Below, piece by piece: positions 5,161-10,491 of a stretch of DNA of 64,000 nucleotides. Every line of letters starts with the position of its first letter. The first letter of the stretch is position 1. The notes under the pieces were generated by a model that did not search any database, had not been told where the DNA came from, and saw nothing but the letters and a program-made list of their open reading frames with translations. The position numbers and the translations under genes are program-made. Location: positions 310,001-374,000 of the forward strand of contig CAWUHX010000073.1 in NCBI GenBank assembly GCA_963922205.1, written 5' to 3'. The stretch comes from Romanomermis culicivorax. Taxonomy: Eukaryota; Nematoda; Enoplea; Mermithida; Mermithidae.

Positions 5161-5259
5161 TTACTGCTGCTGCCCGCCGCCTCCGTAGCCTCCTCGAGGT
5201 CTACCTTGATAGTACCCCCCCTGACCTGGTTGGCCTCGGGTATGACCTCCATCTTGGCC
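5161..5259 (-). CDS. C-terminal RGG extension of ORF3 beyond a TGA
   Basis: After the TGA at 5260-5262 the same frame stays open for 32 codons to a TAA at 5161-5163. It continues the same glycine-, arginine- and glutamine-rich composition, for example YYQGRPRGGYGGGGQQQ. That continuity indicates that the TGA is a premature stop, probably from CGA, and that the original protein ended here. RGG tails commonly bind RNA (family knowledge). Confidence 0.7.
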   Translation of the reverse strand, partial: GQDGGHTRGQPGQGGYYQGRPRGGYGGGGQQQ

Positions 5260-8200
5260 TCAATTTTGGCCTTGTTGGCTCCCGCCGCGTCTACCTAGCG
5301 GCATAAAATTCGGATTATGGAATTGAGCATCCGGGTCTTGACCTTGGTGTTGCCAGGTTCCTCGGCCTCCGTAGGGTCGCTGAGGGCGCCCTCTGAAGCC
5401 TCCTCTGGGTTGACCTTGGTCATACCCCGGTCTAGCCCTATACGGGGCCGGGTTTGAGAACATGTCGTCTCTCCCCTGCTGCCTTTGACCACTGCTAGTG
5501 GAGCTGCTGCGTTGTGGTTTTTGTGTCCGGTAAGTTGAATTAAGAGATTTTGATGATATTGATTTTGATCGAGAAAGCGGACTTTTATAAGAAGTGCTAG
5601 CAGCTTCACTATATGACCTCTGGCTGGTCGTAGCCGATGATTGTTGTATCATCGGTGGTTGTTTCTTAGCTGGAGGGAGTCTAGGCACTTTAAACTTACT
5701 CGGGCTCTTGGCAGCCGTTCGCTGAAATTTATCAGCTTGCGACCTGTCATCGCCTGGTGCCTTCCTCTTAACACCCATCTGGTTTAACCTTTGCGAGCCC
5801 ATAAAGATATATTGATTAAAGGCTGCAATGTAGACATCGTCTACGCGGTTTCCCTGGGCCTCAACGACTAGTTGTCTGTTCGCAAACGAACACGCCTGGG
5901 CATACCACCTACCAATTGCCGTTGGCGTGATCGGAGTGAAATCCAACTGAAGAAAAATCATTAGGGTCACATATCTAATGGCCGTAAAGACGTCTGAGGC
6001 ATCGTAGTCCTGAAGCCATCTGGGGATGAGAATTAAGATGATCCATTCCCAGATCTCCTCAGGGATGCGCTCTCCGTCAAACATAAATCCGCCCTGCATT
6101 TCGAATTGCTGGCGGTAATTTTCGTGAATCTCGGCCATAGCGTCATTGACCATTCTGTAAATCATCGGCCGTTCTTGCCGATCAAAGGCGAAATAATTGG
6201 CGACCTCTGGATTTTCAAATGAGATCGGCCCAATTAAGCGCCTTTGTTCCCGTTGCCACTCCCAATAATCAATCAGAGTTTCGGCTAATTGACCAGGAGT
6301 GACAAACTGCTGTGGTTCCCTTTCGGGTCTACTAGCTACCACATTCAGTTTGACCTTCTTGATCAATTTCTCCTCCGATTCAAGATCGGGCTTCACCAAT
6401 ACGCTTCCCGCAGGTTTGCTACTTCTTGCGGTATAGCTGGAGGGCACGGATTTACTTTTGCCAGATGAAGTACTAACCTCTCCGCTGGTTTTCGATACCG
6501 TTCGCGTCTGAGTGTACGAAGTTGTCGCTGTGGACCCTGTTGTCCTATCCGATTTTGTCTGGCCTATGGAGGTCTCCGTTCGCGTCTGACTTTTTGAAGT
6601 CTCCGTTCTCGTCTGACTCTTTGAAGTCTCCGATCTCGACTTTTGGCTCCTCGAGTATTGTGGGGTCGTTGTTTCTTCGGCCGTATCGTAGGCGTCGTTT
6701 TCGGATCCGGTGGCGGCCGCTCCTTGTTGCTGCTGTCCTTGAGCTGCAAGTATGCGTCGCTTGGCCTTACCTATCCTCTTTCTGCGCCTTACCTTTTCCT
6801 TGGCTAGGTGTCGGATAAATTTTTCCGACATACCTTCAGCTAACATCTGCTGAACTTTGTCTGGGGAATAAATTCCCCGAATACCTTCCTGGGCAATTCT
6901 TCCCCTCCGCATCAGCTCTGTCGCTGCAATGGCTGAATCTGAGCTATCATCGGCTAGTGCCTGCTCCTTCAGCTTCCTTTGGATTGCCCTCTGACGCAGG
7001 AATTCCTGCTGCGTCAGTCTTCTCTGTTCTTGAATTTTGGCCTGTAGGGCCTCTTGCTTCGCTTGTCGGTCATGATCCTTAGGATCTTTGGCCTTCACAG
7101 GTATCTCCTGGGATGCTTCCTGCATCTTCTCCAGTCTGACATCGATCCCTGACATTTTAGTGACTGCTTCGTCAATTTGAGTCTGGATTTTTTCCTCCTC
7201 AAGAGCCTGTTTCTGAGTTTTGGCCTCCATCGCATCCTTATTCTCTGATGTCTGGCCCTCAGATTCCAGAATTTCACCCTCTTCTTCTTCTTCAACATCC
7301 TCCTCTGAACTGGACTCAGAGTCTGAATTTCGTATCTTCGGCAGGAGCTGTTTTACTTTAGCTGGTAACACAGCTGGTGCCGGAGGTACAGACTGCATGA
7401 TGGTGACAATCTCTGGCTCAGGCTCGGCCGGTTGTTGTACTTGAGGTACTTGAGTCGGCTGTGCCACCGCTGGTTGGATTGGGGGCGGCACCACGACAAC
7501 TACTGCAGCTGCCTGCGTAGCAGCAGTGTCCAAAGCTGGTGTAGCTTTGACCACTGGCGCTAGCGCCTGCGGCTGCGCTTTAACCTGTCCCGTCCCTCCG
7601 GCTTGCGCCGTCTGGGAAGTTGAGGGACGATTTACCGGTACCTTAGATATTAACTCACCGGCTGGGGTATATGTTAATGTATACCCGGGCATTTCCGAAG
7701 TGATTGTTCTCTCCCGGAAGCTTTTGCTGACAAACTCCGGTCTGAGCTCGAGCGGATTTCTTGGTGCGTAGGTAATTGGGTAATCGGTCGGCGATGCGTC
7801 TTCCGTCATGGGATACCGCAGTCCCGGCCTCAAAGTCTCGAAGCCTACGTAGTAAAAAGTTACATAAAAATAAGGATTTACCTTGTAGGCTCCGTCCTTC
7901 AATAACGATTTGTCGTCGCCAATTTGTAGGATTTCCTCGGCTTCTCGAAATCGTAGCGGGACAAATCCGAACCGATTCTGCCATGCATATACCCCTTTTT
8001 TAGATGGAAAGCGGGGTTCCGACGGCGGTAGCGTCGCTGCTAACTCTAAATAGTAAGCCAGGCGGTCGCCTGACTTCCAGGACATTTTCTTTATCATTTC
8101 CTGGCCTTCTTTAGTATAACTATTTAGAAAGTTATAGTTTAGCAGAGCGCTAGTTTCATAATCGCACTCTGCTCTGGAATGAGGCCATGCCAAATGATAG

Positions 8201-9689: not shown

Positions 9690-10370
9690 CTAAACATAAA
9701 GTACTATTAATTTTAGTGTTTATTCCCCTCTTTTCGGCGCATTTTCGGGTCTATACTACACCAGCACCACAACACCAAGCGGGTTAAGTTTCGCAGAAAT
9801 TAAATTTAGTGCAGGTTGTTAGGTGAGCCACTGATATACAAACATTGAGCTGGTGGGCAACTAACACCTTACCAAATCTTACCCTTGCTACCTCTATATG
9901 TTGGGGAGGGTAGACCTGATCCGACTGTCCACCACTTGATCGGACACCAATCTCTGACCAGCTGCTTGAGCGACCAACTACGCTCCATTTATGGCGCTGT
10001 ATTTACAATTTTTATAGCGCTCGAGATTGATAATTTTTAATGAATTTGATATCGAAAAAGTAATATGATTTGATTTGATTTGAAAATAAATAATTTTGAT
10101 AAATTTTTGAATGATAAAACTTTAAAACGGGCTGAACCCAAGGTTCTAGGTTTCCCTTGAATCGTATAGCTCTCGGTGGTATCAGGTATATTTCCAAAAT
10201 GGAAATTCCCTGCTTGGCTTCGAGCTTCCGCTTCTCAGTACTCCCATTTTTCGTTCCCTCTAAGTTCTAACCTCGTCTGCCCTTTGGGGCGCCGAGCTGG
10301 TCTTCCAGTGACTTCTGGGCATTACCTGCGGTTTCCAAGAATATTTGATAAAAATAAGTTCGAAACTTAC
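9690..10370 (-). other. Predicted ORF3 intron
   Basis: The donor GTAAGT begins at 10370 and the acceptor TTTAG ends at 9690, both on the minus strand. Joining 10371 to 9689 keeps the reading frame: the first exon is 40 codons plus one base. The intron is AT-rich with stops in the ORF3 frame, for example TAG at 9751-9753. Splicing has not been demonstrated. Confidence 0.6.
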
Positions 10371-10491
10371 CGTCGATGAAGAAAAAATGGTTGTCTTGGC
10401 GGTGCTGGGCCCTGCCATATTCGACGTGGCGCTCTGTGTGCGACCACTCGTGCGTCGGAGCTTGTTGGCGGTTCCGCGCGCCCTTTCCCAT
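10371..10491 (-). CDS. ORF3 exon 1 (start of the exonuclease protein)
   Basis: A 121-nt exon beginning at an ATG in good initiation context (GAGATGG) and ending at a consensus GTAAGT donor. It encodes a short basic N-terminus (MGKGARNRQQ...). It lies in the gap between pol and the long ORF3 frame. Its phase matches the acceptor at 9690, which is the main support. It would be expressed from a separate or spliced RNA, as envelope genes of retroviruses are (inference by analogy). Confidence 0.6.

What the first reader, a model, noticed from the sequence alone, without database searches (positions are those of the whole stretch)
5161..10491. A Ty3/gypsy element carrying a DEDDy 3'-5' exonuclease gene in the envelope position
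Seen: three exonuclease motifs in order (FDVE; GYAVLEDL; YAALDAY, with the Tyr-x3-Asp of the DEDDy class) within a gene of about 1,550 codons between pol and the 3' LTR, without signal peptide or anchor. Known: WRN/RNase D-type nucleases include piRNA and RNAi trimming enzymes (Nibbler, EXD1, MUT-7) and RNA transport factors (Egalitarian). Inference: the element captured a nuclease that may process its own cDNA or RNA, or interfere with small-RNA defence. I know of no described gypsy lineage with this layout, but could not search.
Basis: partly seen in the sequence, partly recalled or inferred. Interest (0 to 1): 0.88.

Follow-up and report, generated by a model that had tools for sequence, protein, structure and literature searches.

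The report
Jumping gene carrying an RNA-trimming enzyme
A very common jumping gene in a worm that parasitises mosquito larvae carries, where related elements keep a virus-coat gene, a large gene that looks like an RNA-trimming enzyme and is under selection to keep working; a comparable set-up has been described in bdelloid rotifers, so this is a new variant of a known kind.

Summary
The window is from the mermithid nematode Romanomermis culicivorax. It contains a 14.66-kb Ty3/gypsy element on the minus strand (LTRs 613 bp, TSD GCAT, gag-PR-RT-RH-IN). Between pol and the 3' LTR lies ORF3, 1,549 codons if one predicted 582-nt intron is removed. This copy has one nonsense codon in ORF3 and one in pol; the other copies examined have sense codons there. 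The genome search listed 74 places (this copy included) with ORF3 at 98-100% identity; 72 of 74 have no stop in the searched stretch. A second family (at least 103 places, ORF3 about 25% identical) has the same layout, predicted intron position and phase, and D-E-D-Y-D residues (19 of 19 aligned loci). pN/pS is 0.06-0.11; pol 0.07. Pfam and PDB sequence searches find nothing significant. A combined profile aligns with bacterial RNase D-type enzymes, catalytic residues in register (E 3e-5); each family alone does not. AlphaFold models were poor.

The layout is not undescribed: bdelloid Juno and Vesta elements carry DEDDy ORF3s. A piRNA role is unlikely, since no Piwi was found in this worm. Best reading: a spliced accessory RNA exonuclease serving the element's own RNA. 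Verdict: new variant of a known kind.

The parts
3803..4415 (-). 3' LTR (613 bp, TG...CA)
   Evidence: direct repeat and boundaries; 6 mismatches to the 5' LTR
17851..18463 (-). 5' LTR (613 bp)
3799..3802 (.). target-site duplication GCAT (left copy)
18464..18467 (.). target-site duplication GCAT (right copy)
14005..17586 (-). gag and aspartic protease part of gag-pol (1,194 aa)
   Evidence: open frame; PF13975 E 4.7e-10
14002..14004 (-). in-frame TAA in pol, private to this copy among the 11 compared
10921..14001 (-). RT, RNase H and integrase part of gag-pol
   Evidence: PF00078 1.9e-39, PF17917 1.5e-31, PF17921 1.5e-18, PF00665 3.1e-14
10272..10491 (-). predicted ORF3 leader exon (ATG 10491; donor at 10272/10271; an inner 45-nt stretch 10370-10326 with GT..AG ends is open in frame and may or may not be spliced)
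   Evidence: the GACG|GTAAGT of the inner stretch is present in 10 of 10 other copies fetched
9690..10271 (-). predicted 582-nt intron of ORF3 (acceptor TTTAG)
   Evidence: three R. culicivorax gene models (P0007, P0017, P0019) read GR[HR]-DYN across this junction; acceptor position and phase shared with family 2
5260..9689 (-). ORF3 main exon (stop at 5260-5262; in-frame TGA 9424-9426 in this copy)
8956..9516 (-). DEDDy exonuclease core: Exo I GFDVE 9516-9502, Exo II GYAVLEDL 9309-9286, Exo III YAALDAY 8976-8956
   Evidence: profile match to RNase D-type enzymes; residues conserved 19 of 19 loci
7678..8955 (-). second region of ORF3, function unknown (aligned to family 2)
   Evidence: alignment A1
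6754..7677 (-). low-complexity acidic/Pro/Gln linker ending in a basic, NLS-like cluster RRRKRIGKAKRR 6789-6754
   Evidence: read from the translation; NLS reading is inference
5857..6306 (-). C-terminal globular-looking region of ORF3 (FVTPG... to ...NRQLVVEA), no family match
   Evidence: 'globular-looking' is a judgement by eye
5359..5406 (-). RG-rich tail of ORF3 (RNA-binding type by composition)
20072..22459 (+). decayed, partial second ORF3-like sequence, 41-78% identical by segment, with an Exo III motif
   Evidence: tblastn within the window; nucleotide match 66.7% over 1,328 columns

Best explanation
The window carries one damaged copy of an abundant, recently active Ty3/gypsy family of R. 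culicivorax. Between pol and the 3' LTR the family keeps a gene, predicted to be spliced, for a soluble protein of about 1,550 residues. The protein has an N-terminal DEDDy 3'-5' exonuclease domain, a second region shared with a sister family, a disordered linker with basic clusters, a C-terminal region and an arginine-rich tail. Shown: the element, the gene's conservation, the same layout and splice signals in a second family, the catalytic residues, selection as strong as on pol. Well supported by profile comparison: DEDDy homology. Inferred: the protein is made from a spliced subgenomic RNA, binds RNA, and trims RNA 3' ends to the element's benefit, most likely by processing or protecting its own RNA in the nucleus. 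Removal of small RNAs aimed at the element is second. It is not an envelope.
For: LTRs, TSD, gene order. 74 places with ORF3 at 98-100% identity, window copy included, 72 of 74 without a stop in the 587-aa stretch searched. 10 of 10 other copies fetched (chosen from those with frames of 1,462 codons or more) have pol at the expected place upstream, and an LTR match in both outer pieces, one of them partial. Second family, at least 103 places, same LTR - gag-pol - ORF3 - LTR layout in 3 of 3 copies inspected. D, E, D, Y, D kept in 19 of 19 open loci aligned although ORF3 is about 25% identical between families. hhalign of A2 with RNase D-type enzymes: E 3.1e-5 (single comparison), probability 73, 146 columns, catalytic residues in register; in a script the score was 30-35 and 49 readable column shuffles of 50 reached 8.8 at most. 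pN/pS 0.06 (family 1), 0.11 (family 2), dN/dS 0.06-0.09 against the divergent copy L009; pol 0.07. Splice signals at the same place and phase in both families. No transmembrane window in the parts scanned. Precedent for a spliced non-envelope gene in this position in a nematode gypsy element: CERV of Cer1 (PMC10309623, passages).
Against: Pfam, NCBIfam and PDB sequence searches give no significant match even with an unbroken ORF3 stretch from another copy. The PF01612 genome search does not list the window's ORF3. The A2 profile against PDB has a mut-7 homologue first but only at E 0.067. Either family's profile alone gives no match to RNase D. AlphaFold models have mean pLDDT 32 and 40; no Foldseek match reaches E 0.001, and unrelated folds (glucokinase, ribosomal proteins, FtsH) stand only about 1-2 Z units below the best VIA rows. 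Some other subfamily gene models lack catalytic residues (for example GFNVEK, GYVVEK, YAALEAY), so activity may not be needed everywhere. Copies for the pN/pS test were the best protein matches, which lowers pN. No RNA or enzyme data.
Confidence: 0.6

Rival explanations
1. ORF3 keeps the DEDDy fold mainly as an RNA-binding platform and works like CERV of Cer1 or like Egalitarian: a nuclear, spliced-mRNA product that binds unspliced genomic RNA and sends it out of the nucleus; catalysis is secondary or absent.
For: Same position and (predicted) spliced origin as CERV, which is required for export of Cer1 genomic RNA (PMC10309623, passages). The genomic RNA here would also carry an intron. Basic clusters and RG- or Arg-rich tails in both families. 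Egalitarian among the best structural rows of the weak model. Some subfamily models lack catalytic residues.
Against: All four acidic residues and the tyrosine are kept in 19 of 19 open loci of two families only about 25% identical, which fits catalysis better. Sequence similarity to CERV was not tested. The structural rows come from a model with pLDDT 40.
Confidence: 0.25
2. ORF3 is an anti-RNAi nuclease: it degrades siRNAs or RdRP templates that target the element.
For: No Piwi was found in R. culicivorax (clade I), and the clade has RRF-3-type RdRP (PMC4323106, passages), so siRNAs are a likely defence. DEDD nucleases act in RNAi in worms (MUT-7, ERI-1; recalled). Best PDB profile row is a mut-7 homologue, not significant.
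Against: No functional data. An effect in trans on all elements would not favour the encoding copy specifically (inference).
Confidence: 0.12
3. ORF3 is an ordinary envelope gene or a chance host-gene insertion, and the motifs are coincidental.
For: Envelope is the usual third ORF of retrovirus-like gypsy elements; Pfam does not recognise the domain.
Against: No transmembrane window in the parts scanned of either family (about a fifth of the family-2 ORF3 was not scanned); present at 74 and at least 103 places; profile match to RNase D with shuffled controls.
Confidence: 0.03

Closest known systems
Bdelloid rotifer Juno and Vesta LTR retrotransposons with DEDDy ORF3 (Rodriguez, Kenefick and Arkhipova 2017, PMC5408684)
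   Same: LTR element with a DEDDy/RNase D-like exonuclease ORF3 after pol, in the envelope position; more than one family; no transmembrane domain
   Different: Rotifer families carry a dUTPase between PR and RT (not found here by Pfam) and their motif is reported as DEED; here D-E-D-D with Tyr, host is a nematode, ORF3 is about 1,550 codons (up to about 1,700-codon frames in family 2) with further regions, and splicing is predicted. Direct homology of the two ORF3s could not be tested
Cer1 of Caenorhabditis elegans and its CERV protein (PMC10309623)
   Same: Nematode Ty3/gypsy element; spliced gene in the envelope position that is not an envelope
   Different: No nuclease domain of CERV (517 aa) is mentioned in the passages I saw, and it shares exons 1-3 with gag; exon sharing with gag was not tested here
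RNase D / WRN / Rrp6 / EXD2 / Nibbler (DEDDy exonucleases, PF01612)
   Same: Order of Exo I, II, III; profile match to RNase D-type enzymes; weak structural rows
   Different: No significant single-sequence or Pfam match; low overall identity
Errantiviruses and other gypsy elements with env
   Same: Gene position between integrase and 3' LTR
   Different: No membrane anchor found; nuclease-type domain instead

Membership tests
Ty3/gypsy LTR retrotransposon | Long terminal repeats with TG...CA ends and a short target-site duplication | tested here: met
   613-bp LTRs, 6 mismatches, GCAT duplication; in the other copies a 4-bp duplication is seen by eye in 5 of 8 readable pairs of flanks, not in 3
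Ty3/gypsy LTR retrotransposon | Domain order PR-RT-RNase H-IN | tested here: met
   Pfam hits in that order
Ty3/gypsy LTR retrotransposon | Placement in a named gypsy clade by RT tree | not tested
   no reference RT set was gathered
DEDDy 3'-5' exonuclease | Four acidic residues in Exo I-III plus Tyr four residues before the last Asp | tested here: met
   19 of 19 open loci in A1; exceptions in some other subfamily gene models
DEDDy 3'-5' exonuclease | Profile homology to known DEDDy enzymes | tested here: met
   combined profile A2 vs A3, E 3.1e-5, probability 73, shuffles far below; but single families alone not, and Pfam PF01612 not
DEDDy 3'-5' exonuclease | RNase H-like DEDD fold | tested here: inconclusive
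DEDDy 3'-5' exonuclease | 3'-5' nuclease activity | not testable with these tools
   needs purified protein
Bdelloid Juno/Vesta-type DEDDy elements | DEDDy ORF3 downstream of pol | tested here: met
Bdelloid Juno/Vesta-type DEDDy elements | dUTPase domain between PR and RT | tested here: not met
   no dUTPase match at E <= 1 in the two gag-pol pieces
Bdelloid Juno/Vesta-type DEDDy elements | ORF3 sequence related to the rotifer ORF3s | not testable with these tools
   rotifer sequences were not at hand; protein searches named no rotifer
Env-bearing gypsy (errantivirus-like) | Transmembrane anchor / signal peptide in the third ORF | tested here: not met
   0 hydrophobic windows above 1.6 in the pieces scanned; signal peptide judged by eye from the N-terminal sequence only
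CERV-type gene of Cer1 | Made from a spliced mRNA | tested here: inconclusive
   conserved donor, acceptor and phase in two families and three matching gene models, no RNA data
CERV-type gene of Cer1 | Needed for nuclear export of genomic RNA | not testable with these tools
   needs an experiment
Host EXD1/Nibbler/WRN/Egalitarian families | Closest sequence relationship to one of these cellular families | tested here: inconclusive
   no significant match to any

The most novel reading that the evidence does not exclude
A lineage of nematode Ty3/gypsy elements, ancestral to at least two families now each present at dozens to a hundred or more places, has replaced the envelope by its own spliced, multi-domain RNA exonuclease, acquired independently of the rotifer elements, and uses it in trans or cis against RdRP-dependent siRNA silencing in a host that has lost piRNAs. 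It would be an LTR-retrotransposon-encoded nuclease that counters RNAi.
Probability: 0.12. Interest if true: 0.88.

Novelty: new variant of a known kind. Interest (0 to 1): 0.58.

Why it matters
DEDDy ORF3s were reported from bdelloid rotifers, where their catalytic activity was still to be demonstrated and the authors saw no significant departure from neutrality in the extra ORFs (PMC5408684, passages). Here a second animal phylum has the same kind of gene with a strong signal of purifying selection, two families and large recent copy numbers. That suggests repeated recruitment of an RNA exonuclease into the envelope position. It also offers natural genes with open frames for testing what the enzyme does for a retroelement. 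With CERV it supports the view that nematode gypsy elements can put spliced RNA-handling genes, not envelopes, behind pol.
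Full report
WHERE IT IS FROM. Protein searches with ORF3 returned entries named Romanomermis culicivorax: 10 of 10 and 18 of 19 (the 19th name is cut off before the species). The window's genome, 359.1 Mb in 595 contigs, matches the R. culicivorax v2 assembly in Table 1 of PMC10879605 (passages read). R. culicivorax is a mermithid nematode that parasitises mosquito larvae.

THE ELEMENT. On the minus strand, LTRs lie at 18463-17851 (5') and 4415-3803 (3'). They are 613 bp with 6 mismatches and TG...CA ends, flanked by GCAT on both sides. 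The element is 14,661 bp. gag-protease (17586-14005) and RT-RNase H-integrase (14001-10921) lie in one frame interrupted by a TAA. [quoted passage not shown]

ORF3. GFDVE 9516-9502, GYAVLEDL 9309-9286 and YAALDAY 8976-8956 are in order. Removing one predicted intron (10271-9690) gives a gene of 1,550 codons including the stop, from ATG 10491 to the stop at 5260, with one in-frame TGA in this copy. No hydrophobic window of 19 residues exceeds 1.6 in the two main pieces.

OTHER COPIES. The genome search scored 74 of 3,400 first-look candidates. All 74, the window's own copy among them, match the whole 587-aa query at 98-100%; 72 of 74 have no stop in it; by my count of the rows, 58 of 74 lie in open frames of at least 1,500 codons. 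The query starts after the window's TGA, so it does not cover Exo I. For 10 copies chosen from those with frames of 1,462 codons or more I fetched LTR, pol and leader pieces. 10 of 10 have a sense codon where the window has TAA, and a pol piece at the expected offset; in one the pol piece is split. At the TGA place 7 of 7 loci have a sense codon. The GACG|GTAAGT donor and a TTTAG acceptor are present in 10 of 10 (in one, one base before TTTAG differs). LTR pairs could be compared fully in 9 of 10 copies: 0 to 29 mismatches over about 613 bases; in the tenth one LTR match covers only 152 bases. Flanks show a matching 4-bp duplication by eye in 5 of 8 readable pairs. This suggests that the family transposed recently and at different times.

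A SECOND FAMILY. P0010, a distant R. culicivorax hit, found at least 103 places (103 of 3,021 candidates scored), most at 72-75% to P0010. In three copies read on both sides the order is LTR (593-596 bp, 98.8-99.5% identical), gag-pol (one open frame of 2,285 codons in one of the three, broken in the other two), spacer, ORF3, LTR. Against the window family, RT-RNase H is 63%, integrase 51% and gag 24% identical, and ORF3 about 25% over the aligned N-terminal part. The C-terminal part of ORF3 gave only low-complexity matches between the families. ORF3 has therefore diverged about as far as gag, which suggests, without proving, that it was present in the common ancestor. Both families have a splice acceptor right before the homologous [AAC GTC AAA CG] codons and a GACG|GT donor in a leader exon, giving the same phase-1 junction. 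In family 2 leader, donor and acceptor were found in 3 of 3 copies, one of which lacks the ATG; the acceptor was present in 19 of 19 fetched loci where that stretch was found, out of 30. Three R. culicivorax gene models read GR[HR]-DYN across the family-1 junction (P0007, P0017, P0019).

SELECTION. Pooled pN/pS over 671 codons among 7 family-1 loci is 0.06. Over 690 codons among 7 of the 17 family-2 loci it is 0.11. Between L009 and those seven, dN/dS is 0.06-0.09 over 444 codons. For the pol piece among 6 of the 10 fetched copies it is 0.07. Loci were top protein matches, which biases pN down. The L009 comparison is less affected, but its dS is near saturation (1.7-2.8).

HOW IT PROBABLY WORKS. 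Shown: a conserved, selected gene without membrane anchor in the envelope position, with a DEDDy-type domain. Inferred: it is translated from a spliced RNA; basic clusters and RG- or Arg-rich tails bring it to RNA; the exonuclease trims RNA 3' ends. Own-RNA processing or protection is my first choice. A CERV-like role in moving unspliced genomic RNA is the main rival: in Cer1, another nematode gypsy element, the envelope-position gene is spliced and required for genomic RNA export (PMC10309623, passages). An anti-siRNA role is possible. A piRNA role is unlikely, since no PRG-1/Piwi and no piRNAs were found in R. culicivorax (PMC4323106, passages).

WHAT IS KNOWN. Rodriguez et al. 2017 (PMC5408684; passages, outline and section 3.1 read) describe DEDDy ORF3s in bdelloid Juno and Vesta elements, acquired at least twice, and in Athena retroelements. 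My searches for a nematode or other report were made, in an open-access library only; I saw none in the listings. So the kind is known, and this is a new variant in another phylum with a large ORF3 that is predicted to be spliced. PF01612 matches elsewhere in this genome are many (116 at E up to 1). 14 of those rows lie in open frames of 608-614 codons and 7 weak ones in frames of 1,232-1,398 codons. I could not read them.

Noticed in passing
genome G000 (R. culicivorax), rows, e.g. C74:734540-735034 and C69:277875-278369: PF01612 exonuclease matches in 14 similar open frames of 608-614 codons, 12 of 14 starting only at profile position 34: a multicopy family of unknown nature.
   Followed up: no
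genome G000, C9:2528983-2529444, C298:393748-394209, C17:1817048-1817530 and others: Weak PF01612 matches in seven long open frames of 1,232-1,398 codons, perhaps a third family of DEDDy ORF3s nearer to the Pfam model.
   Followed up: no
window 39285-40238 (+): Integrase fragment 48% identical to the element's integrase; no ORF3 match was found behind it in the window.
   Followed up: partly
window 38803-39318 (-): Short ORF with several CCHC zinc-knuckle motifs (gag-like or CNBP-like by eye), overlapping the start of the integrase fragment on the other strand.
   Followed up: no
window 24037-24220 and 25833-26076: Two arrays of a 14-bp unit (ATCCGTCCCCCACA and its reverse complement) about 1.6 kb apart in opposite orientation, open in several frames.
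   Followed up: no
window 43956-44465: Tandem array of a 133-bp unit, 3.8 copies, 87% matches.
   Followed up: no
window 23177-23431 (-) and 27783-28540 (-): Fragments that read by eye like RNase H and gag/protease parts of other LTR elements.
   Followed up: no
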